Positions 1 to 29,011 of a DNA stretch of 64,000 nt are shown here, piece after piece; within the stretch, counting starts at the first letter, position 1; every line of letters begins with the position of its first letter. The notes beneath the pieces were generated by a model. It saw only the letters and a program-made list of their open reading frames with translations, searched no databases and was not told the origin of the DNA. Source of the stretch: Candidatus Vecturithrix granuli (GTDB lineage Bacteria > Moduliflexota > Moduliflexia > Moduliflexales > Moduliflexaceae); the NCBI GenBank assembly GCA_000739535.1, contig DF820480.1, positions 12,948-76,947 of the forward strand. The letters run 5' to 3'. The position numbers and the translations under genes are program-made.

Positions 1-3000
1 CCTCCAGTGAAAACCCTAATAAAACCCTGGAAGGGATTAAAACGATTTGCTCGGCGTCGCCCAGGGCTAAAATGGCCGTGCGAGTGAAAACCCTAATAAA
101 ACCCTGGAAGGGATTAAAACTCATACGCCTGATCGCCGTAGACGGTCAGTTGCAAGCCCGTGAAAACCCTAATAAAACCCTGGAAGGGATTAAAACGGGA
201 TATTAACGAGCAAGCCTGGAAAAGCTGCAAATTCGGTGAAAACCCTAATAAAACCCTGGAAGGGATTAAAACCCAAAATAGCGCGGTTCTGCGCCTGGAA
301 AAATGCGCGTGAAAACCCTAATAAAACCCTGGAAGGGATTAAAACGTTGGCTGCGCTGCCAGGCTTCCTCAAGCTGCTGGCGGTGAAAACCCTAATAAAA
401 CCCTGGAAGGGATTAAAACGCAAAACATAGCGGGCAACGCTGCTTGTAATGCCACCAAGTGAAAACCCTAATAAAACCCTGGAAGGGATTAAAACATATG
501 CTTAATGGAGGGAACCCATGAAATTATGTGAGTGAAAACCCTAATAAAACCCTGGAAGGGATTAAAACAAAGGCTTGCTGCACTTTGTCTGCGCCGTTCA
601 ATCCGTGAAAACCCTAATAAAACCCTGGAAGGGATTAAAACATCTTCGAACGTGACCGGAATGACCTGATATTTGGGCACGTGAAAACCCTAATAAAACC
701 CTGGAAGGGATTAAAACTACAGTCCCGCGCTTGCGAGCATGTCCAGGAAGCCCCCGGTGAAAACCCTAATAAAACCCTGGAAGGGATTAAAACTTGAAAC
801 CCGCAACCGCATAGAAAAACGCCTTGTGAAAGTGAAAACCCTAATAAAACCCTGGAAGGGATTAAAACTCTGCCACGCGCAGCACCGCAGCGTCCTGGCC
901 TGTTCCGTGAAAACCCTAATAAAACCCTGGAAGGGATTAAAACACATATTCCTGCTGTTCCGCGACGGTCAGCGTGCTGGTGTGAAAACCCTAATAAAAC
1001 CCTGGAAGGGATTAAAACTTTTGATGCGCGCCATGCGGTCAATATGCGCATTGGCCTGGTGAAAACCCTAATAAAACCCTGGAAGGGATTAAAACATACG
1101 ACACGGTTGCCGGGGCTGGCAAAGCCAGGCTCTCGTGAAAACCCTAATAAAACCCTGGAAGGGATTAAAACTATCAAGATTGAAATACTATTCCTGGCGA
1201 TTCGTCAAGTGAAAACCCTAATAAAACCCTGGAAGGGATTAAAACCGTATTCCGGAGGCGTCGGGAATGAGGGAGATTGCAGAGTGAAAACCCTAATAAA
1301 ACCCTGGAAGGGATTAAAACTTTTCCTTCGGCTCAGATGCCGAATGCGTTCACGGTGTGTGAAAACCCTAATAAAACCCTGGAAGGGATTAAAACGACAT
1401 TGGCTTGTTATGGATTTTCAAGAATTCCTGGGCGTGAAAACCCTAATAAAACCCTGGAAGGGATTAAAACCTGATAGAGTTATTCCGAAATTACGGGCGG
1501 ACTTTGGTGAAAACCCTAATAAAACCCTGGAAGGGATTAAAACGGGATGTTGGTTTCTGGATTGTTGGAAGATGCTGAGTGAAAACCCTAATAAAACCCT
1601 GGAAGGGATTAAAACTTTGAGAAAGTTTGTGTCGAAAAGCGTCTTCCTGCGGGTGAAAACCCTAATAAAACCCTGGAAGGGATTAAAACGGAATGCTGAG
1701 GGAGGATATTTGAGTGATGGACATAATAGTGAAAACCCTAATAAAACCCTGGAAGGGATTAAAACGCACCCCGGGCAAGGCGCTATGCGGATGACCTCAC
1801 ATGTGAAAACCCTAATAAAACCCTGGAAGGGATTAAAACTTGAGAAGTTCCATACGCATCTGTCAGAGGCTGACCGGTGAAAACCCTAATAAAACCCTGG
1901 AAGGGATTAAAACATTAACCTTGCCTTTCAGCGCATAATACGCTTCATAGTGAAAACCCTAATAAAACCCTGGAAGGGATTAAAACTATTGTCTCTGAAT
2001 CTGCAAATTGAATCGTTACAATAGTGAAAACCCTAATAAAACCCTGGAAGGGATTAAAACACACCAACGGCAATTCAGTTAGCAGACGCGAAAACGTGAA
2101 AACCCTAATAAAACCCTGGAAGGGATTAAAACCAGGTATAAGCCCGCATCTTCCCGAGTTGAAGATCGAAGTGAAAACCCTAATAAAACCCTGGAAGGGA
2201 TTAAAACAACTAATATGCCACGCGGTGGCGATAGAGGGGGGCGTGTGAAAACCCTAATAAAACCCTGGAAGGGATTAAAACGAGAAAAAAGGCGGCGATT
2301 CGTTCGACACCTACAACCAGGTGAAAACCCTAATAAAACCCTGGAAGGGATTAAAACTTTGCGCGGCTTGAATGAGTTCGGCTTGACATGTGGCTGTGAA
2401 AACCCTAATAAAACCCTGGAAGGGATTAAAACGGAAAGTCATCTGCGTCGGCCTCCGCAAATTTTAGCAGCGTGTGAAAACCCTAATAAAACCCTGGAAG
2501 GGATTAAAACGTTGAGTATTTTCTCAGCACCCTCGACAAACGTAAGGCCGGTGAAAACCCTAATAAAACCCTGGAAGGGATTAAAACGCGTGCCTGTGTG
2601 CCCCTATTCAAGGGCACGTCCTTCAGGGGTGAAAACCCTAATAAAACCCTGGAAGGGATTAAAACCTCAGACACACAAATCAAGGTGCTGGCTGGCGGAC
2701 AATGGTGAAAACCCTAATAAAACCCTGGAAGGGATTAAAACTGTTTGAGCAGCATTAAATCATCATAGGCCCCAGCCCAGTGAAAACCCTAATAAAACCC
2801 TGGAAGGGATTAAAACTTCAAAAACGGCGATGCTTTGTCGGGTTGCGTTTTCGAGTGAAAACCCTAATAAAACCCTGGAAGGGATTAAAACGACACTATT
2901 AAGGAAATCAAACAATGCGGCTTCGAGTGAAAACCCTAATAAAACCCTGGAAGGGATTAAAACAAATCTATTTTCCCCATCGTGTTCGCCGTCCGTTTCG

Positions 3001-6000
3001 TGAAAACCCTAATAAAACCCTGGAAGGGATTAAAACTCGGGATGAGGATGAAGGCAAATTGTGGTGCATTCCGAGTGAAAACCCTAATAAAACCCTGGAA
3101 GGGATTAAAACAATTGATACTCGTGATGTCCTGAATGTCCTTTCTGTCCCGTGAAAACCCTAATAAAACCCTGGAAGGGATTAAAACGCCGATCTGACCG
3201 CGCTCAATACGGCGGTGCAAGCCGATGTGAAAACCCTAATAAAACCCTGGAAGGGATTAAAACTCTCCCGTATTTTATTGAGAAAATTTTGCTTCTTATT
3301 GGTGAAAACCCTAATAAAACCCTGGAAGGGATTAAAACAACCAATTGTTCAAAATCGCGTTTGCTCATCAGACGTGAAAACCCTAATAAAACCCTGGAAG
3401 GGATTAAAACACGCCGTATTTCTGGAATACCTGTATCGCTCGCCGCTCCGTGAAAACCCTAATAAAACCCTGGAAGGGATTAAAACTGAACATCCATAAA
3501 AGCTGCTGTGTAGATTTCGCTGTAAGTGAAAACCCTAATAAAACCCTGGAAGGGATTAAAACTTCGGCCGAATGCCTGGCGCTGCCGGCATTGCGCTTTG
3601 TGAAAACCCTAATAAAACCCTGGAAGGGATTAAAACATCAAAAGAATATAGGATAAACTTTCCAGGAGGCACAGGTGAAAACCCTAATAAAACCCTGGAA
3701 GGGATTAAAACCGAAGAAGGCATGTCCTTCCTGTCCTTCTTCGTCCTTTGTGAAAACCCTAATAAAACCCTGGAAGGGATTAAAACAAAGGTTTTAATAA
3801 TCCGATCAATGGCGTCCGCCTTGTGAAAACCCTAATAAAACCCTGGAAGGGATTAAAACACGATTATCGATACATTGCACAAGATTTATTTCGGGAAGGT
3901 GAAAACCCTAATAAAACCCTGGAAGGGATTAAAACTCCAGTCCGAGAAAATGCCATAATCGCTTTTGCCGTCACCGTGAAAACCCTAATAAAACCCTGGA
4001 AGGGATTAAAACCTCGGTTTGTCGGTGATGATGGACCAGGCCACGCTTTGTGAAAACCCTAATAAAACCCTGGAAGGGATTAAAACAATAATTTTACCTC
4101 AGCAATTTTTATTGAGATTGCGTGAAAACCCTAATAAAACCCTGGAAGGGATTAAAACCTTTCTGTCCCCATCTCTGAAGCAACCGGCCAGCCTCAGTGA
4201 AAACCCTAATAAAACCCTGGAAGGGATTAAAACTCCACCGATCGTACCACTCGGATCGCAGCGACCGATGTGAAAACCCTAATAAAACCCTGGAAGGGAT
4301 TAAAACATCGAGAGTGTAGTAGCTCCAATATCAGCAATCTTAGCGTGAAAACCCTAATAAAACCCTGGAAGGGATTAAAACCTTCCGACCGTAACGGCTG
4401 AAACGATTGTTGCCGCAATGTGAAAACCCTAATAAAACCCTGGAAGGGATTAAAACTGCACAGGTGCCTGAGATATATGTCAGAGTTCCAGCAAGTGAAA
4501 ACCCTAATAAAACCCTGGAAGGGATTAAAACAGGAAGACACACAGCAGCAATGCTCCCCATATTATTGTGAAAACCCTAATAAAACCCTGGAAGGGATTA
4601 AAACAGTTGAAATCCAACACAAAAGACGGCCGCTATATTTCCGTGAAAACCCTAATAAAACCCTGGAAGGGATTAAAACCGGAGAGATAGCGCAGGAAAT
4701 CACCGTGGCGGTCATGGTGAAAACCCTAATAAAACCCTGGAAGGGATTAAAACCTGGCTGTGGCGATGGGATGAACGCCCGACGCGGCGGGGTGAAAACC
4801 CTAATAAAACCCTGGAAGGGATTAAAACCACTGACCGCCATATCCAGAGCCTGCACCGCTGCGAGTGGTGAAAACCCTAATAAAACCCTGGAAGGGATTA
4901 AAACGCCACAGGTTCAGGCGGGCGCACTTTGGGGTTGCTGGCGGTGAAAACCCTAATAAAACCCTGGAAGGGATTAAAACTCCTCCATCTCAAACTCCCC
5001 TTCGTAGCTCTGCAATGTGAAAACCCTAATAAAACCCTGGAAGGGATTAAAACTCAATCACGTGCTGACAGCCGAATTCTTGCTGCTGCTGAGTGAAAAC
5101 CCTAATAAAACCCTGGAAGGGATTAAAACAAGAAGTGGACGGCGGCAGCTATTTTGACATCTGCGGCAGTGAAAACCCTAATAAAACCCTGGAAGGGATT
5201 AAAACTTGACCGCTGAATTGAGGCCGGGTTCAGAGGCCAGGTGAAAACCCTAATAAAACCCTGGAAGGGATTAAAACATCAGGGGAATATCCCGGTCTAT
5301 GCCTTCGACAAATCGGGTGAAAACCCTAATAAAACCCTGGAAGGGATTAAAACTGTTACACGCTTTACAAGGGCGTTAGACAGTACGGCAGCCGTGAAAA
5401 CCCTAATAAAACCCTGGAAGGGATTAAAACCGCTGGCGAAATTGACCGGCGCAAAAAGCTTGACAGGTGAAAACCCTAATAAAACCCTGGAAGGGATTAA
5501 AACTCTACTCCTGTTTAAACGGTTTCAGCCCTTTTTCCGCCCCGTGAAAACCCTAATAAAACCCTGGAAGGGATTAAAACAGCTTCACCGTTTTTTTTAC
5601 AGATTCCAGGTTGAGCGGCGTGAAAACCCTAATAAAACCCTGGAAGGGATTAAAACAGGTTCGGGTCAGCCGGGTCAAGGGCTTCAATCTGAGTGAAAAC
5701 CCTAATAAAACCCTGGAAGGGATTAAAACTTGGACGGCCAGAAAGTCGCGCCGGAGAAGCCGTCGCGCTTGTGAAAACCCTAATAAAACCCTGGAAGGGA
5801 TTAAAACGTCACGGTCCATTCGTGATCATGCCAATCGTCATCCTCGGGTGAAAACCCTAATAAAACCCTGGAAGGGATTAAAACGACTTTCGGGGCTAAG
5901 GCGCGTTGACGTTCGGCCGTCAAGTGAAAACCCTAATAAAACCCTGGAAGGGATTAAAACCACGTGCACGAACTCAGTCCCCAGGCCAGGCTGCGCTTTG

Positions 6001-9000
6001 TGAAAACCCTAATAAAACCCTGGAAGGGATTAAAACGGTCATGCGCTCCAGGTCTTTCTCCGAAATCGTGGGTGAAAACCCTAATAAAACCCTGGAAGGG
6101 ATTAAAACATCAACGATAAAATTTGTTTCTGATGGTCAACCTCGGCCGTGAAAACCCTAATAAAACCCTGGAAGGGATTAAAACGGTAGAAACAGAATTA
6201 GGGTGGTCAATTCGCACGGCGTGAAAACCCTAATAAAACCCTGGAAGGGATTAAAACAGTTTTGATAGCAGCATTCCGTTTATCGTGAATGTGTGAAAAC
6301 CCTAATAAAACCCTGGAAGGGATTAAAACAACTGGCCTACGGCACAGGCCGGGCGTCTATCTCAGGTGAAAACCCTAATAAAACCCTGGAAGGGATTAAA
6401 ACCGGGTTTGAACATCCTGGTATTTTGCAGTATATTCAAGTGAAAACCCTAATAAAACCCTGGAAGGGATTAAAACAATTTCGCCAGCGCACGTTTTTTG
6501 ATGCGCGCCATGGTGAAAACCCTAATAAAACCCTGGAAGGGATTAAAACTATCCAGCAGACAATTCGCTCTCATCGTGTGCGCCTGATGTGAAAACCCTA
6601 ATAAAACCCTGGAAGGGATTAAAACAAAGGCTTCGACCAGGTACTTTCTGACGGGCTGCTTGAGTGAAAACCCTAATAAAACCCTGGAAGGGATTAAAAC
6701 GGGCGTCTTCGATGTCGTCAATCCAGGCCAGGTCAACACGTGAAAACCCTAATAAAACCCTGGAAGGGATTAAAACATGAAATTGTACCCGGATGCCCCG
6801 CGGCGGCAGATTCGTGAAAACCCTAATAAAACCCTGGAAGGGATTAAAACCCATTTGATTTTGCTGTTATGCGCGTTGATCGCGTACTGGTGAAAACCCT
6901 AATAAAACCCTGGAAGGGATTAAAACTCGAAACAGCCCTGCTGGTTGTTCCTGCGGCTGCTCTTCGTGAAAACCCTAATAAAACCCTGGAAGGGATTAAA
7001 ACCTGGCTGGCGGACAATGTCGTAGTTCCGATGGGCAGAGTGAAAACCCTAATAAAACCCTGGAAGGGATTAAAACCGTGAAATACATCCAATATGACCG
7101 AATAATCATATTGTGAAAACCCTAATAAAACCCTGGAAGGGATTAAAACAAAGGCATATTTCAGGGCGTCCGGCCCGTCATCGTGCTTGTGAAAACCCTA
7201 ATAAAACCCTGGAAGGGATTAAAACACGAGTACATAAATCATCATACGGCGTCAAAACTTCTTTCGTGAAAACCCTAATAAAACCCTGGAAGGGATTAAA
7301 ACGAGCTTGAATTATTCCTGCAAATCCCTGACAATAAGATTGTGAAAACCCTAATAAAACCCTGGAAGGGATTAAAACCAGGATGCTTTAGATCAGTGTT
7401 TGCAAATGATTGAGTGAAAACCCTAATAAAACCCTGGAAGGGATTAAAACTGATCCAAATGAAATCTATGTATTACGCCGGGCTTCTGTGTGAAAACCCT
7501 AATAAAACCCTGGAAGGGATTAAAACTTGTCAGCGGCAGATTAAGCGCGATGCGCCGCGCACGGTGAAAACCCTAATAAAACCCTGGAAGGGATTAAAAC
7601 TTTATACAGGACCTGAAAGCCGTTTTCTTCGCGCGTGAAAACCCTAATAAAACCCTGGAAGGGATTAAAACTGCGCGGACTGATCCCAAAGCACCACAAC
7701 AAAGGGGTGAAAACCCTAATAAAACCCTGGAAGGGATTAAAACGAACTGCTGCAAGAGAGCGTGGTGGCGATGGTGCGGCGCAGTGAAAACCCTAATAAA
7801 ACCCTGGAAGGGATTAAAACAGCCGGGTCATAGCGCACCCACACCTTTTTGTCTTTATGTGAAAACCCTAATAAAACCCTGGAAGGGATTAAAACATCAA
7901 TTTTTTGGGCTTCCCGGCTCGGCCGTAGGGGGTGAAAACCCTAATAAAACCCTGGAAGGGATTAAAACTTTTTCGAGCCAGGGGGTCAGCAGATTGATCG
8001 GGGTGTGAAAACCCTAATAAAACCCTGGAAGGGATTAAAACAAAATCGCATTGGAAACGGTGATCCACAAGCTGCCCGCGGTGAAAACCCTAATAAAACC
8101 CTGGAAGGGATTAAAACAGACTCTCTTGCTTCTCAAGCACCATGCGCTGGTAGTGAAAACCCTAATAAAACCCTGGAAGGGATTAAAACCTTTTGATTAT
8201 CTTAGGCATTGTGATGCTGCTGGGGCGTGAAAACCCTAATAAAACCCTGGAAGGGATTAAAACAAGGCCAGGCGATTTCCCGGTCGTCTTATGCCGCATT
8301 GTGTGAAAACCCTAATAAAACCCTGGAAGGGATTAAAACGAAGGGTATGAAATTATTTTTAATGTGTTAGATGAGTGAAAACCCTAATAAAACCCTGGAA
8401 GGGATTAAAACAAGAAAAATATATGCTATAGCTAAAAATTTATATGGTGAAAACCCTAATAAAACCCTGGAAGGGATTAAAACGTATGCTGCTCTCAGTC
8501 ATAATCATACTGGAGTATGTGAAAACCCTAATAAAACCCTGGAAGGGATTAAAACAGCAATGGCATCAGGGACTTCTGCCCCTGACATTGGTGAAAACCC
8601 TAATAAAACCCTGGAAGGGATTAAAACCCTGCTATTGGAGCAATTCCTTCTAATGCAGATTTGTGAAAACCCTAATAAAACCCTGGAAGGGATTAAAACA
8701 TCAAAAAACTTGACAAGATGCTTTTTATCCAAAAACGTGAAAACCCTAATAAAACCCTGGAAGGGATTAAAACTTATATTTAGGTTCAATTCCCAACTCT
8801 TGGCAGGCCTTGGTGAAAACCCTAATAAAACCCTGGAAGGGATTAAAACGCAACGAGAACGACGCCAGCTTATGCTTTAAGTGCTGTGAAAACCCTAATA
8901 AAACCCTGGAAGGGATTAAAACATTATGCAAATGCCGCGGTTCCCTGGTCAACAGTGGCGTGAAAACCCTAATAAAACCCTGGAAGGGATTAAAACGTAA

Positions 9001-12000
9001 CGGGCACGATATTGAGGAGGCCATCAAACTTTGGGTGAAAACCCTAATAAAACCCTGGAAGGGATTAAAACCACACGTGCCTGGTTTCTCGTAATCGGTC
9101 ATATCGGTGAAAACCCTAATAAAACCCTGGAAGGGATTAAAACTGGCAAAAAGATGTTCTTTCTTTTGCAATGGCAAAAGAAGTGAAAACCCTAATAAAA
9201 CCCTGGAAGGGATTAAAACGTATTCACTGCTTTGGTAACAACTCCAATTTCGCCATTGTGAAAACCCTAATAAAACCCTGGAAGGGATTAAAACGACATG
9301 ATAGAATCAATTAATACCATGTTGACACAGTGAAAACCCTAATAAAACCCTGGAAGGGATTAAAACGTCGCTGTTTGTTGATACCAATCTAACGATAATC
9401 CAAGTGAAAACCCTAATAAAACCCTGGAAGGGATTAAAACTCTTTCGAGTAATTGTTTGTTTTTGAGAACCTTGTGTGAAAACCCTAATAAAACCCTGGA
9501 AGGGATTAAAACCGTTTCACGCCAGACATTGCATCTTCAAGCTCTATCGGTGAAAACCCTAATAAAACCCTGGAAGGGATTAAAACGTTCTTCACGCTTG
9601 ACCATTTTATGCGCTTCATTGACGGTGAAAACCCTAATAAAACCCTGGAAGGGATTAAAACCTTCATGCACGGATTGGCGAGCACTCTGACATTCCAGTG
9701 TGAAAACCCTAATAAAACCCTGGAAGGGATTAAAACGTTCGCTGCTTATTGGTAAAGAACTTGAATTTGAATTTGTGAAAACCCTAATAAAACCCTGGAA
9801 GGGATTAAAACGAACTCCGGGCGATTTTCGCAGGAGTCGCAAAGGGGTGAAAACCCTAATAAAACCCTGGAAGGGATTAAAACCGCAAGGCGCGGCGAAT
9901 CAATTCACCTTCACCAGCATTCTGTGAAAACCCTAATAAAACCCTGGAAGGGATTAAAACACAGTAAAATTTATTGATGGAACAGTAAGCAATCCACAAG
10001 TGAAAACCCTAATAAAACCCTGGAAGGGATTAAAACCAATTTTAGAATTAAATCCTCCGGGCTTTCCCCTGCGGGGGGGTGAAAACCCTAATAAAACCCT
10101 GGAAGGGATTAAAACTCCAGAGCCCCTTTGATTGCTGCAATTGTAGCCGGAAGTGAAAACCCTAATAAAACCCTGGAAGGGATTAAAACTGCTTTCCCCT
10201 CTTTGATTTCAGCTCGCTCAACAACACGTGAAAACCCTAATAAAACCCTGGAAGGGATTAAAACATTTTATAATGAATTAGCTATTATCTCAATTTGTTT
10301 TTGTGAAAACCCTAATAAAACCCTGGAAGGGATTAAAACTAATTTTTTCCCTGGCCAAAGCGCAATTTGTGAGTTGTGAAAACCCTAATAAAACCCTGGA
10401 AGGGATTAAAACTTTAACCTCTGGCATTCTATCGGCTAATACAAGAGTGTGAAAACCCTAATAAAACCCTGGAAGGGATTAAAACAAGGTGCTATTGCAA
10501 CCTTAACGTTTACAGCAGATCAGGGGTGAAAACCCTAATAAAACCCTGGAAGGGATTAAAACTAAGCGAGTTGCTTCTCGCGTGCCATCACGCATCGTAG
10601 CGTGAAAACCCTAATAAAACCCTGGAAGGGATTAAAACGATCTTTTCTCATCTGCGATTGCCGGTCAAAGTGGAGTGAAAACCCTAATAAAACCCTGGAA
10701 GGGATTAAAACCATTCCAACAATGCAAGAAATCAGCAACATATAAAGGTGAAAACCCTAATAAAACCCTGGAAGGGATTAAAACGCGATAAAAAAGCAGC
10801 TCGGCCTTTCGCTTTCATTGCCAGTGAAAACCCTAATAAAACCCTGGAAGGGATTAAAACCAATATTTCAGTGTGTATTTACCGGCAGAATTTTTAGTGA
10901 AAACCCTAATAAAACCCTGGAAGGGATTAAAACTATCCATCGGTTTATAACTTTTTCCAAGATATAAAATCGTGAAAACCCTAATAAAACCCTGGAAGGG
11001 ATTAAAACTGTATTGCCTCTGCAATGTCTTGCGGCACATCTCGAGTGAAAACCCTAATAAAACCCTGGAAGGGATTAAAACGGATCTATTTTAACATTAA
11101 TCGAGGTTGAATTATCGTGAAAACCCTAATAAAACCCTGGAAGGGATTAAAACGCGTTGTATGATCCGGGCGTCCAGCCCGAATTTTCAGTGAAAACCCT
11201 AATAAAACCCTGGAAGGGATTAAAACAATGGGACATATTCCATTTGCTTCTGAAATGACTCCCCCGTGAAAACCCTAATAAAACCCTGGAAGGGATTAAA
11301 ACTAGTTTGGATGGGACGAATGACTATATTTCCGTTGGTGAAAACCCTAATAAAACCCTGGAAGGGATTAAAACCTCGCGTTTTCTGCGCATCATACCGG
11401 AGTTGTTCTGCCTCGTGAAAACCCTAATAAAACCCTGGAAGGGATTAAAACTTTAAAACAACCGCATGGATGCCGACACCTTTCTTAATGTGAAAACCCT
11501 AATAAAACCCTGGAAGGGATTAAAACGTGCGACAACGCCGCATAAACGCTATCATGATTGTGCGTGAAAACCCTAATAAAACCCTGGAAGGGATTAAAAC
11601 CCCCCTGCTCTCACGATTTCCTTACCCCCGCAACAAGTGAAAACCCTAATAAAACCCTGGAAGGGATTAAAACTATTCACCGCTGCCATATTTAATGGCA
11701 GCTCTTTTACATGTGAAAACCCTAATAAAACCCTGGAAGGGATTAAAACAGTAATCCGCAACTTGAACAAGGGTATATTCAAACGCGTGAAAACCCTAAT
11801 AAAACCCTGGAAGGGATTAAAACACGAATATGATTTTAGAGTGCATTTTGAACATAATCTTGTGAAAACCCTAATAAAACCCTGGAAGGGATTAAAACTA
11901 GAACTGGCGAGGAAATGAAAAAGTTAGTTATGGCAAAGTGAAAACCCTAATAAAACCCTGGAAGGGATTAAAACTATTCTAAGATATTCTCACTGGCATC

Positions 12001-15000
12001 AGTGACATAGTGAAAACCCTAATAAAACCCTGGAAGGGATTAAAACCCGGAGTGGCAGGCGTCACGCCTTCCCGGAATATTTTGGTGAAAACCCTAATAA
12101 AACCCTGGAAGGGATTAAAACTATACGTGCCGGGACGCAACCCCTGATTGCATCCCTTGTGAAAACCCTAATAAAACCCTGGAAGGGATTAAAACTTTCG
12201 TGGCCTGATCTTAGCGAAAGCAGAGGAAGGTGAAAACCCTAATAAAACCCTGGAAGGGATTAAAACATTTGTTGCAATTTTCAATAAATTTCTAAGGATT
12301 TCATGTGAAAACCCTAATAAAACCCTGGAAGGGATTAAAACCTTTGCTGGGGCTTTTGACCTGACATATACGCTTGAAAGTGAAAACCCTAATAAAACCC
12401 TGGAAGGGATTAAAACGGACAACTTCATGCTGGAAGTTATTATGATACCTTTAGTGAAAACCCTAATAAAACCCTGGAAGGGATTAAAACTTTGCTGCGG
12501 TTGCGGTGACAATCGCTCCTTTCGCCGTGTGAAAACCCTAATAAAACCCTGGAAGGGATTAAAACAAACATACCCCACTTCGCAGATACATGGGTTTGAG
12601 CCATGTGAAAACCCTAATAAAACCCTGGAAGGGATTAAAACTATGGAGAGAGACGGCAAACGATTGAGGGTAGAAGGTGAAAACCCTAATAAAACCCTGG
12701 AAGGGATTAAAACAAGAGAACAGTGCTTCGCTGGACGACAGAGGACGCCGTGAAAACCCTAATAAAACCCTGGAAGGGATTAAAACGCAACGCAGCATAA
12801 TCCAAATCATGGTTATGCTGCGTGAAAACCCTAATAAAACCCTGGAAGGGATTAAAACGTGAGGTTGTGGTATCGTCTGGCGCGTGGCTGTCGGGTGAAA
12901 ACCCTAATAAAACCCTGGAAGGGATTAAAACTCTCTCCAGCAGGCTTTCTTTAATAGCCGGAATCGTAAGTGAAAACCCTAATAAAACCCTGGAAGGGAT
13001 TAAAACGCATGGTGTTTGCATATACTAGAGGGTAGTTCTTTGTGAAAACCCTAATAAAACCCTGGAAGGGATTAAAACGTGAAGGCTGTCGAAAGTGGAA
13101 GTTTTTTGACGCTGAGGTGAAAACCCTAATAAAACCCTGGAAGGGATTAAAACAGGGATCAGGCCGGCTACATCTTCAATCATTGTTCCGTGAAAACCCT
13201 AATAAAACCCTGGAAGGGATTAAAACCGCCGATTGCACTCCTAATAAATCCCCGTCAGCGTCAGCGTGAAAACCCTAATAAAACCCTGGAAGGGATTAAA
13301 ACCGGTACTGGGGGAAACTTTCGGAATTGGAGATGGATCAAGTGAAAACCCTAATAAAACCCTGGAAGGGATTAAAACTTACAGGATCGCGCTGGTGGAA
13401 AAAGCTCGTGTCAGTTTGTGAAAACCCTAATAAAACCCTGGAAGGGATTAAAACATATACTTTCGCGGCCTCGGCGTTCGTGCGCGGCGCATCGTGAAAA
13501 CCCTAATAAAACCCTGGAAGGGATTAAAACCTTTGGCTATGATTGTGGAAAGCTGTCAGAGATTGGGTGAAAACCCTAATAAAACCCTGGAAGGGATTAA
13601 AACCGCTGAACTTCGGCACGTTGCGGAGTTCAGTCGTTTTGTGAAAACCCTAATAAAACCCTGGAAGGGATTAAAACCTTTCTGCTGCCAAATTGGGGTT
13701 ATCTGAAGCGCAGTTGTGAAAACCCTAATAAAACCCTGGAAGGGATTAAAACCCGATAGTTCCGCACTTCCTCAAAAAGCTTGGCCCACTGTGAAAACCC
13801 TAATAAAACCCTGGAAGGGATTAAAACTTTTGCTTTTGCTATTACGGCGTTTTAGCACTGGGGTGAAAACCCTAATAAAACCCTGGAAGGGATTAAAACT
13901 TTTCCTTTTTCCTATCTTCTCCCCATTTCCTCCAGTGAAAACCCTAATAAAACCCTGGAAGGGATTAAAACAACTGACTGGACAGACCCGATGACCTACA
14001 TCGCCTGGTGTGAAAACCCTAATAAAACCCTGGAAGGGATTAAAACGACGGCGATTGCCTATCAAACGGAGGATGTCTCCAAGGTGAAAACCCTAATAAA
14101 ACCCTGGAAGGGATTAAAACTCAATAGCGGTGGCAAAGGCATTGCCAGCCGTTGAGGTGAAAACCCTAATAAAACCCTGGAAGGGATTAAAACTAGGGCC
14201 ATTAGTAAGAGGAGCCAACAAGCCAACCGTGGTGAAAACCCTAATAAAACCCTGGAAGGGATTAAAACGTTTCTCCGATAAACTTCACCAGTGGCGGCCA
14301 CCCGATGGTGAAAACCCTAATAAAACCCTGGAAGGGATTAAAACTCGCTATTCGTGTCGCTATTATGTCGCTATTCCGAAGTGAAAACCCTAATAAAACC
14401 CTGGAAGGGATTAAAACCGCATTTTTGAAAAGGAGGGACTGCGCGGCCTGATTCCAGTGAAAACCCTAATAAAACCCTGGAAGGGATTAAAACTAGCAGA
14501 CGGTGTCGGCGTTGGGCTGTAACACAATAGTGAAAACCCTAATAAAACCCTGGAAGGGATTAAAACGTTTATTGATTCAATATAGGAAATGGCATTTCTT
14601 GTTGTGAAAACCCTAATAAAACCCTGGAAGGGATTAAAACCGCGGAGAACCTGTTTCTTGAGTTTTTTGCGTTGGGTGAAAACCCTAATAAAACCCTGGA
14701 AGGGATTAAAACGCTATTATGTCGCTATTCCGAATAGCGACATTTTCCGAGTGAAAACCCTAATAAAACCCTGGAAGGGATTAAAACAGGGGGCGTGCAG
14801 GCTGCGCCTGGCCTATCACGAGACGTGTGAAAACCCTAATAAAACCCTGGAAGGGATTAAAACGGCGAATATCACATGGACGCCTTCTGATTGGTAAATC
14901 CGTGAAAACCCTAATAAAACCCTGGAAGGGATTAAAACTATACTCGTCGATAGTTTCTCGTTGAGGGGGGGGTGTGGTGAAAACCCTAATAAAACCCTGG

Positions 15001-18000: not shown

Positions 18001-21000
18001 ACACACTTACCTGAAAATCATATATAAGTGAAAACCCTAATAAAACCCTGGAAGGGATTAAAACTTTTTGCCTTCGGACGTGTGTCCGCTGTTCAAGATG
18101 GTGAAAACCCTAATAAAACCCTGGAAGGGATTAAAACGATATGCGGGTTTCACCATGAACGGAACAACCCTGGTGAAAACCCTAATAAAACCCTGGAAGG
18201 GATTAAAACCCTTTTGACAAAGGGGCTACTGTCAAGGTGTCTTTCTGGTGAAAACCCTAATAAAACCCTGGAAGGGATTAAAACTTTTCTTCCCCATCAT
18301 TTGACTTCGATTCTGGCAAATAAGTGAAAACCCTAATAAAACCCTGGAAGGGATTAAAACAAAATGTGGCGTTGAATTGGATATGTACTGGACGCCGAAA
18401 GTGAAAACCCTAATAAAACCCTGGAAGGGATTAAAACTTTTGAGAAGGAATACGAAACGGTGCAGACACTTATGTGAAAACCCTAATAAAACCCTGGAAG
18501 GGATTAAAACTTATTTGACGTATGCTTCTACCTGGCAGAACCAAATGAGTGAAAACCCTAATAAAACCCTGGAAGGGATTAAAACTCATAATTCATAACT
18601 TGCTCAAAATTTATTTTTGGGTGAAAACCCTAATAAAACCCTGGAAGGGATTAAAACTTAATTTGGGTATATCAAGAATTGCCCACTTTTCAGTGAAAAC
18701 CCTAATAAAACCCTGGAAGGGATTAAAACAAGTCAAGGCGCGTATCATAGACAAAATTGTCGAGAAAGGTGAAAACCCTAATAAAACCCTGGAAGGGATT
18801 AAAACATGGCGAAAAAGTTAGGATGGAGTACAGGCAAGGTAGCAGTGAAAACCCTAATAAAACCCTGGAAGGGATTAAAACCCAAAAGGTGAAAGAATGG
18901 ATGCGACAAGATGGGACGAGTGAAAACCCTAATAAAACCCTGGAAGGGATTAAAACGCTATTTGTTCCGCAAATTGACCAGCGTTCGCCGTGTGAAAACC
19001 CTAATAAAACCCTGGAAGGGATTAAAACTGCTTGTAAAAAGTTTGACTTTCTCCTATTTTAGGTGAAAACCCTAATAAAACCCTGGAAGGGATTAAAACA
19101 TGCTGATTCACACTCACAAACATGCTCACACTCATATTGTGAAAACCCTAATAAAACCCTGGAAGGGATTAAAACCCTTCTAACGGGATCACGGCTGATT
19201 CCCATTCAGAGTGAAAACCCTAATAAAACCCTGGAAGGGATTAAAACACCATCAAAAAACCAATAACTCTTCGATATCGCATCTAGTGAAAACCCTAATA
19301 AAACCCTGGAAGGGATTAAAACATCCTGTGTTTCTCATGTTCCTTTCTCCTTTTTTTCGGTGAAAACCCTAATAAAACCCTGGAAGGGATTAAAACTTTT
19401 TGAAGGAATCTCCATTGGAGATCGCCTTAACGGGGTGAAAACCCTAATAAAACCCTGGAAGGGATTAAAACTGTTGCGACATGCCCGGCGCACTCTTCAA
19501 AACTCCAGTGAAAACCCTAATAAAACCCTGGAAGGGATTAAAACTGAACATATAGGATTAGAAGCATACATTAAGGGCATAAGTGAAAACCCTAATAAAA
19601 CCCTGGAAGGGATTAAAACATCTAAATTAGAAATGTCATTGTTTCCGGCCGTGACTGAGTGAAAACCCTAATAAAACCCTGGAAGGGATTAAAACACTGA
19701 TCCGACATTAGTGAAGCTCGTTGCGGTCGTTCCGTGAAAACCCTAATAAAACCCTGGAAGGGATTAAAACGTACATTTTCGGAGTGGCTTTAATCGTGTT
19801 CTCTTTTGTGTGAAAACCCTAATAAAACCCTGGAAGGGATTAAAACTGATCAAAAGGCTTGCCAAAAACATCCTTGGAAGGAGTGAAAACCCTAATAAAA
19901 CCCTGGAAGGGATTAAAACAGTAACAACCATTGATAAACAGAACTTGACCGTGTTTGTGAAAACCCTAATAAAACCCTGGAAGGGATTAAAACTGAGGAC
20001 TGCCATCCCCATCGTAGAAGCAATACGAGTGAAAACCCTAATAAAACCCTGGAAGGGATTAAAACGTATTCACTACAAACGATACCCCAATCATCCACTC
20101 AGGGTGAAAACCCTAATAAAACCCTGGAAGGGATTAAAACGTTGAAGCTGAGTGTATGCCCAAGTTTCCATATAGTGAAAACCCTAATAAAACCCTGGAA
20201 GGGATTAAAACAAATCTGATCTTAAACTCGCCAATTCCCGATGTTTCATGTGAAAACCCTAATAAAACCCTGGAAGGGATTAAAACTTGACGATTTTTTA
20301 GGGATGATCTCCAATTTGTTGACGTGAAAACCCTAATAAAACCCTGGAAGGGATTAAAACGAGAAACCAGAGATGGCCTGCTTGACGACATTCAAAAGTG
20401 AAAACCCTAATAAAACCCTGGAAGGGATTAAAACAATGCTGTATCGAGATAAGGCGCAATGGCCGTTTGCAGGTGAAAACCCTAATAAAACCCTGGAAGG
20501 GATTAAAACGTTGATTCAATTTCTTATCGGGTGCGGGTGTATCGCTGCGTGAAAACCCTAATAAAACCCTGGAAGGGATTAAAACCATTTTCTCTTTGAG
20601 GGGTTGTTATCCGGTGATATGTGAAAACCCTAATAAAACCCTGGAAGGGATTAAAACAGAAAAACACAGAGTTAATCCGAAGCTCTACGCACATGTGAAA
20701 ACCCTAATAAAACCCTGGAAGGGATTAAAACGTCTTTCTTTCAGGGGGTGTGGTTGGCATGATTCTGTGAAAACCCTAATAAAACCCTGGAAGGGATTAA
20801 AACACATCTTTTTTCAGACTCAACCGCAGATCTTGCGCTAATGGTGAAAACCCTAATAAAACCCTGGAAGGGATTAAAACGCACGCTCTGTTTACGTACT
20901 ACAGCCACGCCAAATGGTGAAAACCCTAATAAAACCCTGGAAGGGATTAAAACATGATCATGATGCCGATTATGCTGCGTTGACTCAGTGAAAACCCTAA

Positions 21001-24000
21001 TAAAACCCTGGAAGGGATTAAAACGATTTCACGTGGGGAAAGCGTCACATGGTGTTTTAGTGAAAACCCTAATAAAACCCTGGAAGGGATTAAAACCGTT
21101 GTCTGCGGAGGGGTAAAGGATTGAGGGCGTTATGTGAAAACCCTAATAAAACCCTGGAAGGGATTAAAACCTGAAGATGGTGCGGTGTTACGATGCCCGT
21201 TCCAGTGTGAAAACCCTAATAAAACCCTGGAAGGGATTAAAACAAAAAGAGGAGAGAGATAAGAAGATTGTCGAGTTATATTGTGAAAACCCTAATAAAA
21301 CCCTGGAAGGGATTAAAACTTTGCGTTATATAACGACACGGGGTTTGAGCATGTGTGAAAACCCTAATAAAACCCTGGAAGGGATTAAAACGTGTTTCTG
21401 TTGTGAATCTGGTTTCTGAAGTGCCTTATGTGAAAACCCTAATAAAACCCTGGAAGGGATTAAAACAACTTTTCGCCACTTGTTAGCTGATCTTTCGCAA
21501 TATCGTGAAAACCCTAATAAAACCCTGGAAGGGATTAAAACGATTGATTTGCGTCGTGATGTGCGATCGCTGGTTTCAATGTGAAAACCCTAATAAAACC
21601 CTGGAAGGGATTAAAACGATTCTACTAGTTCTTTTCTCGGTTCGTTGGTGACTCTTGTGAAAACCCTAATAAAACCCTGGAAGGGATTAAAACCTTCATA
21701 CATGCGTTCCACTTTCCCGACGAATTTCGTGAAAACCCTAATAAAACCCTGGAAGGGATTAAAACTAATCTGCTGCTCCAGCAAAAGGGAGAGCAGAATA
21801 GTGAAAACCCTAATAAAACCCTGGAAGGGATTAAAACGATCGATAAAAGAGCAGAGAAGGAAAGCAGACTTTTGTGAAAACCCTAATAAAACCCTGGAAG
21901 GGATTAAAACGCATTAATAAGCCATTGAAAGACTGATACGGGTTTTTGGTGAAAACCCTAATAAAACCCTGGAAGGGATTAAAACTTCATAGTGGAACTC
22001 CTTTAAAAAAATTGAACATAGTGAAAACCCTAATAAAACCCTGGAAGGGATTAAAACTCTACGATTTCAAAAGTTTCATCTGAATAACCATGTAAGTGAA
22101 AACCCTAATAAAACCCTGGAAGGGATTAAAACATAATTGCCTAAATCACAGCCGATATAATATTTTTGTGAAAACCCTAATAAAACCCTGGAAGGGATTA
22201 AAACTCACTTTTATCAAATTTCCCATCATTGACTATCCATACGTGAAAACCCTAATAAAACCCTGGAAGGGATTAAAACTTGATCGGTGCTCCTCTAAAA
22301 GGCGGAATCCTATCATCTGGTGAAAACCCTAATAAAACCCTGGAAGGGATTAAAACAGCATACGACCAACACGTAATGCAGGCAACGCGTCGTGAAAACC
22401 CTAATAAAACCCTGGAAGGGATTAAAACGATTCTTCCGTTTGGTTATAGTTTGCCTTTTCCTGGGGGTGAAAACCCTAATAAAACCCTGGAAGGGATTAA
22501 AACTCTTTCAGCAAGGCCGTGCAGACGGCCTAAAAGAGTGAAAACCCTAATAAAACCCTGGAAGGGATTAAAACTGCGAGTTCAACGGCGTTGAGTCTTT
22601 CTGATGTGGCGTGAAAACCCTAATAAAACCCTGGAAGGGATTAAAACTGCCTTGAAGCGTGATATTTCTGAGGTTTGGCTTCGCAGTGAAAACCCTAATA
22701 AAACCCTGGAAGGGATTAAAACGTAAACCCTCCGTCTTCATCATAACCGGAGGCATAGTGAAAACCCTAATAAAACCCTGGAAGGGATTAAAACATCCTC
22801 ACAAGAGAATAAAAGAAGGGCATTTTCACAGAGTGAAAACCCTAATAAAACCCTGGAAGGGATTAAAACTTAACTGGAATGCCAGCAGCTTGCATCCCCT
22901 CAACGTGAAAACCCTAATAAAACCCTGGAAGGGATTAAAACATTATTTTCTGAATTGGTAAATTTTGAGGGAAGCGAGGTGAAAACCCTAATAAAACCCT
23001 GGAAGGGATTAAAACTTAACTCGCTAAATTTTATAAATAGCGGGGCGCGAAGTGAAAACCCTAATAAAACCCTGGAAGGGATTAAAACGCTATTTTTAAT
23101 TATTTCTTTTATTTTCTTTGATATTGTGAAAACCCTAATAAAACCCTGGAAGGGATTAAAACGGTATAAGGTGGATGGAATTCTCCCAACTCGTTCCAAG
23201 TGAAAACCCTAATAAAACCCTGGAAGGGATTAAAACGGTTTCTTTCCAGACTTTGAGGGGGTCAAGGCAGCCATTGTGAAAACCCTAATAAAACCCTGGA
23301 AGGGATTAAAACTTTTTGCGCCCAAACCTTGACCGGCAGATTGGCATTGTGAAAACCCTAATAAAACCCTGGAAGGGATTAAAACAACTTTTGAGTCGAG
23401 TGCGCACTGAACTTTTGAGTCGGTGAAAACCCTAATAAAACCCTGGAAGGGATTAAAACATGGTATGATTTAACAGCGTGGACAATAATTCTTGAGAGTG
23501 AAAACCCTAATAAAACCCTGGAAGGGATTAAAACAGAAATACTTTTCGCGTTTCTTCTTTCCCTTTCTTTTAGTGAAAACCCTAATAAAACCCTGGAAGG
23601 GATTAAAACGAACCATTCATGTTAAATTCGGATACATTGCGTGGTGAAAACCCTAATAAAACCCTGGAAGGGATTAAAACCCATCTGAAACATTCCATAA
23701 AATCGGGTAGTTATTCTCGGTGAAAACCCTAATAAAACCCTGGAAGGGATTAAAACCGCTCCGGCGCACATGCGCGACCCTCTGTGCTCCGGGTGAAAAC
23801 CCTAATAAAACCCTGGAAGGGATTAAAACCATATTTTTTATCCATTACAGAAAGGGTTATAATTATCAAGTGAAAACCCTAATAAAACCCTGGAAGGGAT
23901 TAAAACATGTGGCACATCGCAGATTCTTCTATGGGTTGCGAGATGTGAAAACCCTAATAAAACCCTGGAAGGGATTAAAACATGAAATTACCATTGCCAC

Positions 24001-27000
24001 CGCGCACTCGGCTAAAGTGAAAACCCTAATAAAACCCTGGAAGGGATTAAAACCGCATATACATAGGGCGTACAGCCCCAAAGAATAAGGTGAAAACCCT
24101 AATAAAACCCTGGAAGGGATTAAAACTCAGAGCTTCCTGGCGTTCGGTTTCGACGACCTGAAGTGAAAACCCTAATAAAACCCTGGAAGGGATTAAAACA
24201 GACCAGAGTAAAGGAAGTCAATCAATTCATCTAAAGTGAAAACCCTAATAAAACCCTGGAAGGGATTAAAACACCATAATCATCAACCCATTGAAAGATA
24301 GCTGTCGTTTGGTGAAAACCCTAATAAAACCCTGGAAGGGATTAAAACCTATCACAAGCCTGACGGAATCTCCTATAGTTAGATTGTGTGAAAACCCTAA
24401 TAAAACCCTGGAAGGGATTAAAACACTTCAGGATAATCGACAAAAAATACTTCAGCATTGGTGAAAACCCTAATAAAACCCTGGAAGGGATTAAAACTAC
24501 AATATGGCCGGTGAGCTTTGCCGGTTATATTAGTGAAAACCCTAATAAAACCCTGGAAGGGATTAAAACACATCAGATTTTCCTTCTGAAGAATATCCGG
24601 TGGTGGTGAAAACCCTAATAAAACCCTGGAAGGGATTAAAACTGTATGTCTAGAGGTGCGTGGAAAGAAAAGATGCCGTGAAAACCCTAATAAAACCCTG
24701 GAAGGGATTAAAACTAACGATATTGTTCCGTCCTCCTGGGCGGAACAATATGGTGAAAACCCTAATAAAACCCTGGAAGGGATTAAAACGTGTATTAGCG
24801 TTTTAGGAAGTGCCATTTCTTATTCTTGTGTGAAAACCCTAATAAAACCCTGGAAGGGATTAAAACACAAAAAAATGACGTATGGCGAATATTGCCTGTT
24901 TGGTGAAAACCCTAATAAAACCCTGGAAGGGATTAAAACTTCGGCTTTGGGACATAATCATGATTCAGATTATGCCGGTGAAAACCCTAATAAAACCCTG
25001 GAAGGGATTAAAACTTGTAATCGTCCGCTGTATAGGCTTGCGTTTGCGTGAGTGAAAACCCTAATAAAACCCTGGAAGGGATTAAAACAGCAACAAATTC
25101 AATATCGTTCCAACCCCTCATTTTGTGAAAACCCTAATAAAACCCTGGAAGGGATTAAAACGCGTTGGGCTTGTGTCGGGGCGGTTGGCTCTTCATGGTG
25201 AAAACCCTAATAAAACCCTGGAAGGGATTAAAACAAAATCGTGGCTGGCCGTGAAAATGGAGTCAATCATTGTGAAAACCCTAATAAAACCCTGGAAGGG
25301 ATTAAAACGGTAATTTTATTGCAGATCGGGCTAAGGGTGGGGTTTGTGAAAACCCTAATAAAACCCTGGAAGGGATTAAAACACACCAACGGCAATTCAG
25401 TTAGCAGACGCGAAAACCGCGTGAAAACCCTAATAAAACCCTGGAAGGGATTAAAACAGCATTGAGTATCGTGATGTCTCGCATATTTGGAAGTGAAAAC
25501 CCTAATAAAACCCTGGAAGGGATTAAAACAGCAGGAATTCATTTTATCTCGATGTAAGGTCATACTGAGTGAAAACCCTAATAAAACCCTGGAAGGGATT
25601 AAAACTTTCGAAACTGATCATCACGATCATCTGATCAGAAACTGTGAAAACCCTAATAAAACCCTGGAAGGGATTAAAACAAACCGGAAATGTTTGTTGA
25701 TCGCCGCAACCCCGATCCGGTGAAAACCCTAATAAAACCCTGGAAGGGATTAAAACCATAAGGTTCTTGATCAAGTCAATCCGCATAAGATGGAAGTGAA
25801 AACCCTAATAAAACCCTGGAAGGGATTAAAACATTGTCATCGAGCGTTTCAGGGAGAATCCCTTTCATGTGAAAACCCTAATAAAACCCTGGAAGGGATT
25901 AAAACTGAAATGAGATGAATCATGTCATTTTCCCAGTATTCAGTGAAAACCCTAATAAAACCCTGGAAGGGATTAAAACACTGCTTTCGGGCGAGGATCG
26001 TAACGCCCATGAGTCTGGTGAAAACCCTAATAAAACCCTGGAAGGGATTAAAACAATGTGATGTTGCATCTTCCGAGAAGTTTCATCAAACTTGTGAAAA
26101 CCCTAATAAAACCCTGGAAGGGATTAAAACACCACACGCGCAACCGTCGCCAGAACAGCAGACGGAAGGTGAAAACCCTAATAAAACCCTGGAAGGGATT
26201 AAAACTCCGTAAGACGCGGAGCGTCCGCCCGTTCCTTCCGGGTGAAAACCCTAATAAAACCCTGGAAGGGATTAAAACTAAAGCCCTCCCCCCTCAACAC
26301 CAATGATCTCGCTCGTGAAAACCCTAATAAAACCCTGGAAGGGATTAAAACTGTATAGCTGGGGCGTTCAGAATGACGTGATTGTAAGTGAAAACCCTAA
26401 TAAAACCCTGGAAGGGATTAAAACTCTGGATACTCTCGTCCAGCATTCATTCGCCATGCGGCTGGTGAAAACCCTAATAAAACCCTGGAAGGGATTAAAA
26501 CTTCAGGATTTCTCTTTTGAATGATCGCCTGTTGTGGGTGAAAACCCTAATAAAACCCTGGAAGGGATTAAAACACGATTCAAAATCTCAATGTGCAAGG
26601 CAGCCTGAGGTGAAAACCCTAATAAAACCCTGGAAGGGATTAAAACCAGGCTTTCCTGAAAACCGGATGTTGCTCAATGACTTCCAGTGAAAACCCTAAT
26701 AAAACCCTGGAAGGGATTAAAACTTTTGGTAATGTTCGAAGACCTGAATACCTTTGAGTGAAAACCCTAATAAAACCCTGGAAGGGATTAAAACTTTTGC
26801 CGATGCCCGCCTCGCCCACGAACAAGGCAAGTGAAAACCCTAATAAAACCCTGGAAGGGATTAAAACACCAGAATGACATCGCCGGAGACGGAAGCGGTA
26901 TCGGTGAAAACCCTAATAAAACCCTGGAAGGGATTAAAACAACCTTCTCCTCAAGAGACTGACTTCGCAGCCGCTCCGGTGAAAACCCTAATAAAACCCT

Positions 27001-28648
27001 GGAAGGGATTAAAACAGAAGGACATCATCAGGCTTTCCTTTTCTGTGAAAAGTGAAAACCCTAATAAAACCCTGGAAGGGATTAAAACGGGCACGTCAAC
27101 CCCGGTTTCTCCTGCGGATATTACGTGAAAACCCTAATAAAACCCTGGAAGGGATTAAAACAAATCGATTGAATTGCCGTATGACGAGCTAGTCCCGTGT
27201 GAAAACCCTAATAAAACCCTGGAAGGGATTAAAACGATGTTGAGAGGGGAGGGCTTTAGGCCCTTCTCTCTGTGAAAACCCTAATAAAACCCTGGAAGGG
27301 ATTAAAACAACAGCTCATCTACCTTCGCCTCAAGAGACTGACTTGTGAAAACCCTAATAAAACCCTGGAAGGGATTAAAACTTGAAATATGTCAAGAGTG
27401 GCGTTGTATGATCCGGGGTGTGAAAACCCTAATAAAACCCTGGAAGGGATTAAAACCCAAGGAGAACATTGACGTCAACAGCTCATCTACCTGTGAAAAC
27501 CCTAATAAAACCCTGGAAGGGATTAAAACGCCCGGAGTGTCATGTCGCGGTGAAATCGATTGAATGTGAAAACCCTAATAAAACCCTGGAAGGGATTAAA
27601 ACACATGATAACGTATGGTCGCATTTATTTCCAACTAGGGTGAAAACCCTAATAAAACCCTGGAAGGGATTAAAACAACAAATTCAAGCGTTAGACGCCG
27701 AATGGCAGCATTTGGGTGAAAACCCTAATAAAACCCTGGAAGGGATTAAAACACGGAGTTTCCCTTACTCCCATTGTCTGTGGCCATTTAAGTGAAAACC
27801 CTAATAAAACCCTGGAAGGGATTAAAACTCCAGTCCGGCGTTCGCCTGTTTGAGTTGCTCGCCGTTCACGTGAAAACCCTAATAAAACCCTGGAAGGGAT
27901 TAAAACCTATTAGTTAAAGAAAAGCCATTTCCTATTTATAGGAAAAGTGAAAACCCTAATAAAACCCTGGAAGGGATTAAAACCGCTTTAGCATCTGATC
28001 ACGCGTCATGAAAAAAAAGTGAAAACCCTAATAAAACCCTGGAAGGGATTAAAACAATCCAGAAGGGCAGATACCAGCGCGCAAACAGATCGTGAAAACC
28101 CTAATAAAACCCTGGAAGGGATTAAAACTCCCAGACTATGGGATTTCTCCTTTTTGAAGATTGCCGGGTGAAAACCCTAATAAAACCCTGGAAGGGATTA
28201 AAACTTTTTGGATATTGGAGATGGAGAACTTTTTGAGCTGTGAAAACCCTAATAAAACCCTGGAAGGGATTAAAACTCGGTGGGTTAAAGTACTTGAGTT
28301 ACACGATTCTTCTGAGTGAAAACCCTAATAAAACCCTGGAAGGGATTAAAACGGAAAGAAGAAGAACCCACCCAAGCGGCTTGCTAAGGTGAAAACCCTA
28401 ATAAAACCCTGGAAGGGATTAAAACCCCCGGCGAGGGGATTGCGGGAACTCCAGCCGATGAACGTGAAAACCCTAATAAAACCCTGGAAGGGATTAAAAC
28501 ACGCTGACGCCCCCGCTTTCATAACTTACTTTTTAACGTGAAAACCCTAATAAAACCCTGGAAGGGATTAAAACATCGTCATAATATTCCAGGCAAATCA
28601 TAAGGACTTCAGTGAAAACCCTAATAAAACCCTGGAAGGGATTAAAAC
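1..28648 (+). CRISPR. Giant CRISPR array, about 385 repeats, left end outside the window
   Basis: A 37-nt direct repeat, beginning GTGAAAACCCTA and ending AGGGATTAAAAC, recurs from position 7 (first full copy 7-43) to the last copy at 28612-28648. Bases 1-6 are the tail of another spacer, so the array continues leftwards. Sampled unit lengths are 72-77 nt (mean near 74), so spacers are about 34-41 nt and the window holds about 385 repeats. Reading through, I found no repeat variant, and even the last copy is intact. The repeat contains a CCCT/AGGG stem with a 3-nt loop, followed by ATTAAAAC. This matches the 8-nt 5' handle (ATTGAAAC-like) of type I and III crRNAs, so transcription is inferred on the + strand. 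The right flank after 28648 is not AT-rich and has no obvious leader, which again puts the leader to the left. No cas gene lies in the window, so the subtype is unproven. Confidence 0.98.
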
Positions 28649-28710
28649 TCAAGGGTTGCCGGGAATCTGACCACGGTCTATCATCTCAAATATATGTCTC
28701 TTCTGAGCGG

Positions 28711-28816
28711 CAGGGCTGTTAAGTTCTCTTATCTTATGAGAATATGAGAATTCTTCGCTCCTACGGCGCGAAGAACCTCTGTGTTTCCAACGAGATAGAA
28801 GAACTTAACAGCCCTG
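28711..28816. repeat. MITE-like palindromic element, CTGTTAAGTTCT family, copy 1
   Basis: Perfect 17-bp terminal inverted repeats (CAGGGCTGTTAAGTTCT at 28711-28727, its complement at 28800-28816) enclose about 70 bp that itself contains short inverted repeats (GAATTCTTCG, GGCGCGAAGAA). Related ends bound the elements at 40694-40810 and 52290-52413, whose interiors are unrelated. It lies between the end of the CRISPR array and the convergent gene ending at 29012. Together with the next element it fills the 363-bp gap 28649-29011, in which I see no gene. Confidence 0.8.
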
Positions 28817-28854
28817 CTTCCGAGCGGATATGTCTGGTAGATTCTTTCATGATA

Positions 28855-28958
28855 TATAGCGATCCTAAATTAGTTGTTGTCTCGACTCCGCTCGACAACT
28901 GGTGCGGACACTGAGCGGAGTTGAAGTGTATGATTACAAATGATTTAGGATCGCTATA
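28855..28958. repeat. Nested palindromic element with 16-bp terminal inverted repeats
   Basis: TATAGCGATCCTAAAT at 28855-28870 is perfectly inverted at 28943-28958. The interior carries the CGACTCCGCTCGAC motif (about 28881-28895) and an inverted variant near 28911-28925. Variants of this motif recur near 49852-49905, 52317-52385 and 63030-63080. The transcript would fold into a long hairpin between two convergent transcription units, so a bidirectional terminator role is possible but not shown. Confidence 0.75.
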
Positions 28959-29011
28959 GTTCAAAGCAGAAACACTGGAGACCACCATTGCGGCGGCCTC
29001 CATCTGACAGA

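What the first reader, a model, noticed from the sequence alone, without database searches (positions are those of the whole stretch)
1..28648. Exceptionally long CRISPR array with seemingly identical repeats
At least 28.6 kb and about 385 repeats, continuing past the left edge, puts this among the longest arrays known. I found no repeat variant over the whole length, including the last copy, although old distal repeats normally decay. This implies either recent rapid growth, gene-conversion-like homogenisation, or strong selection on every repeat.
Basis: partly seen in the sequence, partly recalled or inferred. Interest (0 to 1): 0.85.

Follow-up and report, generated by a model that had tools for sequence, protein, structure and literature searches.

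The report
Giant uniform type I-D CRISPR array
A wastewater bacterium carries an immune memory of roughly 390-400 stored DNA fragments in one row, with every separating repeat letter-for-letter identical; the array is very large, but its uniformity is what ordinary copying of the newest repeat produces in a fairly young array.

Summary
The window holds 386 exact copies of a 37-nt repeat (7..28648), with no variant at up to 8 edits and 385 distinct spacers. To the left the array continues: three more exact copies and part of a fourth, a 614-N scaffold gap (about 8 units), then a leader and a complete type I-D cas operon ending in cas4-cas1-cas2. Assembly length and scaffold number match Candidatus Vecturithrix granuli UASB270 (published 2015). 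The array has about 397 repeats, fewer than the 587 spacers of Haliangium. The same genome carries two more long arrays with another repeat (301 and 234 copies), also variant-free. Interpretation: leader-end growth by Cas4-Cas1-Cas2, which copies the leader repeat at each insertion, so uniform repeats are the default. Overlapping spacers give a 5'-GTN PAM, the type I-D PAM. No spacer is an exact copy of another. Among 50 benchmark arrays 33 have no interior variant, and variants tend to occur in runs of one substitution, as copying predicts. Zero in 389 is uncommon, not extreme (predictive P about 0.04); zero in all three arrays is rarer (0.0004-0.003). An array younger than about 10^5-10^6 generations suffices; homogenisation and selection on every repeat are not needed.

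The parts
7..28648 (+). CRISPR array, 386 identical 37-nt repeats and 385 unique spacers of 34-42 nt; leader end to the left (outside the window), oldest end at 28648
   Evidence: count, no variant at up to 8 edits; orientation from the leader and cas operon left of the window
1..6 (+). Last 6 nt (CCTCCA) of a spacer that begins inside the 614-N scaffold gap; the gap, 3 exact repeats, the leader and the type I-D cas operon lie to the left at contig C4:766-12947
28612..28648 (+). Terminal (trailer-end, oldest) repeat, perfect copy
28649..28710 (+). Sequence after the terminal repeat; no degenerate further repeat found
   Evidence: (fuzzy search)

Best explanation
[quoted passage not shown] The Cas4-Cas1-Cas2 machinery takes DNA next to a 5'-GTN motif and inserts it beside the leader, duplicating the leader-adjacent repeat each time. 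All repeats are therefore copies of one master repeat and start identical; they differ only by mutations that arise later. The array grew to about 400 units in fewer generations than are needed for such mutations to appear, and old units were not lost as fast as new ones came in. Shown: the cas operon, the repeat counts, unique spacers, repeated independent sampling of the same targets, and the PAM. Inferred: growth rate and age, transcription and immune activity, and the idea that strain-to-strain variety of new spacers caused the assembly gap near the leader.
For: Complete operon with curated family matches to type I-D Cas3', Cas10d, Csc2, Csc1, Cas6, Cas4, Cas1d, Cas2 directly upstream of the leader. 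6 of 6 perfect spacer overlaps show 5'-GTN upstream, chance 1/16 each; GTN is the type I-D PAM (PMC10212523). Same targets sampled repeatedly with different spacer ends, also across the three arrays of the genome, and no duplicated spacer. Spacer GC changes along the array (0.513 to 0.439 near spacer 113, 0 of 2000 permutations), so the array is layered in time. Benchmark: 33 of 50 arrays without interior variant; predictive P(0 in 389) = 0.043. In four benchmark arrays variants stand in runs of 6-16 neighbours, nearly all with one and the same substitution, as expected from copying a mutated leader repeat.
Against: Three arrays with 924 repeats and no variant are rarer than the benchmark predicts (P about 0.0004 to 0.003). 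No protospacer was found in phage, plasmid or viral collections, so age cannot be judged from targets. No sister strain is available.
Confidence: 0.88

Rival explanations
1. Repeats are actively homogenised by gene-conversion-like recombination between copies, so that mutations are erased even in an old array.
For: Three arrays with two different repeats and 924 copies carry no variant, including the terminal repeats; the benchmark predicts about 10 variant events.
Against: Recombination between repeats should also delete or duplicate units; no duplicated spacer is seen. In other arrays variants persist in runs. Ordinary copying plus limited age explains the data.
Confidence: 0.05
2. Strong purifying selection acts on every repeat, because each must be cut by Cas6 to make a working guide.
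For: Repeat sequence matters for Cas6 and for integration (established knowledge).
Against: Not every base of the repeat is likely to matter; the predicted hairpin is weak (-3.9 kcal/mol, z about 0). Selection on one of 400 units should be tiny. Single-base variants are tolerated in other arrays.
Confidence: 0.03
3. The uniformity or the length is an assembly artefact.
For: Short-read metagenome co-assembled from four samples, mate-pair scaffolding, a 614-N gap inside the array. Spacers 30 and 344 (counted from the leader) share six 67-mers, and k=67 was used.
Against: SPAdes was run in assembler-only mode, so no read correction could overwrite rare repeat variants; a 67-mer covers the 37-nt repeat plus 30 nt of unique spacer. 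Only one ambiguous spot exists, none at k=73, and its alternative path would leave a separate circle of about 314 units. The ordered GC layering fits one array.
Confidence: 0.04

Closest known systems
[quoted passage not shown] PCC 6803, Microcystis aeruginosa; PMC10212523)
   Same: Full cas gene set, Cas10d with HD motif, separate Cas3' helicase, cas4-cas1-cas2 beside the array, GTN PAM, leader-end growth
   Different: Cas10d only about 30% identical to plasmid-borne cyanobacterial relatives and 38% to Poribacteria homologues; array far longer than usual
Haliangium ochraceum DSM 14365 arrays (587, 189 and 36 spacers; PMC7145573, PMC8047081)
   Same: Exceptionally long bacterial arrays
   Different: Longest single array is larger there (587 versus about 397 repeats); the genome total is larger here (935 repeats counted versus 812 spacers). 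Its subtype and repeat variation were not examined here
CRISPRs of Ca. Vecturithrix granuli UASB270 as published (PMC4312070)
   Same: Same assembly: 8,384,694 bp in 21 scaffolds; the paper notes 'large' CRISPRs
   Different: Table 1 gives 5 arrays with 550 repeats in total; the counts here are 389 + 546 = 935. The text passages read there do not describe this array individually

Membership tests
CRISPR array | Regularly spaced near-identical direct repeats with unique spacers of similar length | tested here: met
   386 identical 37-nt repeats, 385 unique spacers of 34-42 nt
CRISPR array | Spacers derive from foreign DNA | tested here: inconclusive
   No match in phages, plasmids or two viral-contig probes; but overlapping spacers show independent sampling of the same targets next to a PAM
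Type I-D CRISPR-Cas | Cas10d (Csc3) large subunit | tested here: met
   TIGR03174, 439 bits against a cut-off of 60
Type I-D CRISPR-Cas | HD nuclease motif in Cas10d and separate Cas3' helicase | tested here: met
   Sequence LHDLDK in Cas10d and TGDGKS and DEFH motifs in the helicase (read); TIGR03158 type I-D Cas3', 242 bits against 69
Type I-D CRISPR-Cas | Csc1 (Cas5), Csc2 (Cas7), Cas6, Cas4, Cas1, Cas2 | tested here: met
   All above their curated cut-offs, Cas1 as Cas1d with 412 bits against 385
Type I-D CRISPR-Cas | 5'-GTN PAM | tested here: met
   6 of 6 perfect spacer overlaps and 1 of 5 imperfect ones; literature PAM
Type I-D CRISPR-Cas | crRNA processing and DNA interference | not testable with these tools
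   Needs RNA sequencing and interference assays

The most novel reading that the evidence does not exclude
This lineage keeps its CRISPR repeats uniform beyond what youth explains: three arrays with two repeat sequences and 924 copies hold no variant and no decayed terminal repeat, pointing to a process that restores repeats or to exceptionally low mutation.
Probability: 0.06. Interest if true: 0.65.

Novelty: new member of a known kind. Interest (0 to 1): 0.32.

Why it matters
It is one of the larger single CRISPR arrays on record, in a genome whose total (935 repeats counted) exceeds both the 812 spacers cited for Haliangium and the 550 repeats published for this genome. Three long arrays that share some targets make a good case for asking how arrays reach such size without collapse. 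The uniformity itself mainly shows that identical repeats are the default of leader-end growth, so it should not be read as evidence for a special mechanism without an independent clock.

Tried and rejected
Exact-repeat scan of genome contigs: no other genome. Relatives with the repeat core at up to 3 mismatches: none of 58 others, so no strain comparison was possible. Protospacers: megablast of window 1-24990 against phages and plasmids, four distant blastn slices covering the array against phages, two 24-mers of twice-sampled targets against viral contigs: all empty. Segmental duplication as the source of length: rejected, no duplicated spacer. Truncation of the trailer by a mobile element: a palindromic element of about 105 bp with some 40 places in the genome lies at 28854-28961, about 200 bp past the last repeat, but nothing shows that it removed repeats; left open. 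A paper search on homogenisation of CRISPR repeats found nothing.

Full report
What is there. The window begins inside a CRISPR array and holds 386 exact copies of GTGAAAACCCTAATAAAACCCTGGAAGGGATTAAAAC between 7 and 28648. Allowing 8 edits adds no copy; the 385 spacers (34-42 nt) all differ. In the whole genome there are 389 exact copies, all on this contig, and a 34-nt core finds nothing more at up to 3 mismatches.

Left of the window. The window is bases 12948-76947 of contig C4. Just to the left are 614 N, then part of a repeat, three exact repeats (12091-12277), a leader of up to about 480 bp and an operon with cas3', cas10d, csc2, csc1, cas6, cas4, cas1 and cas2. This is a complete type I-D set. 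The leader end is therefore on the left, and the right end at 28648 is the oldest part. At about 74 bp per unit the gap would hold about 8 units, giving about 397 repeats in all; the gap length is only the scaffolder's estimate.

Which organism. The identification rests on this match of numbers. The paper mentions large CRISPRs and lists 5 arrays with 550 repeats.

Other arrays of the genome. A second 37-nt repeat occurs 546 times at up to 3 mismatches: 301 copies on C3 and 234 on C14, all exact; the other 11 were not located. The genome thus holds 935 counted repeats, more than published; why the published count is lower is not known. The C3 and C14 loci carry type III-like and CARF genes.

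Is the assembly to blame? Reads were assembled with SPAdes at k=67 in assembler-only mode, so no read correction could overwrite rare repeat variants. A 67-mer spans a repeat and 30 nt of unique spacer. Only six 67-mers recur in the array, at 2024-2029 and 25346-25351 (spacers 30 and 344 counted from the leader), and none at k=73. The alternative path there would leave a separate circle of about 314 units, which is unlikely. The N gap remains unresolved.

Mechanism. Spacers that overlap others reveal the bases upstream of their protospacers without any database. In the six perfect overlaps these are GTT, GTG, GTA, GTC, GTT and GTC; of five imperfect overlaps one gives GTG and four do not fit. 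GTN is the type I-D PAM (PMC10212523). Several targets were sampled two or three times with different ends, also between the three arrays, so length came from acquisition and not from duplication. Spacer GC drops from 0.513 to 0.439 near spacer 113 (around window 8.2 kb), and none of 2000 permutations is as strong: the array is layered in time.

Why the repeats are identical. Each insertion duplicates the leader-adjacent repeat (established mechanism), so all repeats descend from one. In 50 benchmark arrays of at least 10 repeats from other genomes there are 23 variant events in 2095 interior repeats; 33 arrays have none; 7 of 17 arrays of 50 or more repeats are perfect throughout; 20 of 41 arrays complete in the fetched stretch have both end repeats perfect. 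In four of them variants stand in runs of 6-16 neighbours, nearly all with the same substitution. That is what copying a mutated leader repeat gives, and such variants are not erased.

How unusual. A gamma-Poisson fit to the benchmark gives a predictive probability of 0.043 for no event in 389 repeats, and 0.0004 to 0.003 for all three arrays together. The benchmark is a convenience sample near cas1 genes of mostly unrelated genomes, and its variant calls ignore insertions and deletions. Zero changes in 14,393 bases bounds the mean divergence at 2.1e-4 per site, and at 8.8e-5 for the three arrays. With a mutation rate of 2e-10 to 1e-9 per site and generation (my assumption) the mean age is below roughly 10^5 to 10^6 generations; one acquisition per few hundred to few thousand generations would suffice.

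Verdict. A real, very large and uniform type I-D array: ordinary in kind, notable in size, with the genome-wide uniformity as a mild puzzle. That a single organism keeps three such arrays is the part most worth following.

Noticed in passing
G000 C3:29053-51397 (L057, L067) and C14:43539-60886 (L058, L068): Two more long arrays in the same genome sharing the repeat GTAGAAACGCGGAATAATCCCTGGAAGGGTTTGAAAC, 301 and 234 copies, all exact; with the I-D array the counted total is 935 repeats against 550 published.
   Followed up: partly
L058:10057-10614 (C14): The cas1 next to the C14 array matches only the C-terminal part (model positions 157-334 of 334) and looks truncated, although its 234 repeats are all perfect.
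   Followed up: partly
window 28854-28961: Imperfect palindromic element of about 105 bp with roughly 40 places across the genome at 78-94% identity; MITE- or REP-like.
   Followed up: partly
window 28710-28817: A second imperfect palindrome just past the array; no other copy in the genome at this sensitivity.
   Followed up: no
window 7-28648: Spacer lengths are bimodal (peaks 35-36 and 38-39, dip at 37), whereas the C3 and C14 arrays peak singly at 37-38; length class shows no clear link to end bases.
   Followed up: partly
window about 8200: Spacer GC shifts from 0.513 (newer) to 0.439 (older) near spacer 113, suggesting a change in the sampled elements.
   Followed up: yes
L057:15096-16553 (C3): Group II intron reverse transcriptase/maturase about 0.5 kb upstream of the C3 array.
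   Followed up: no
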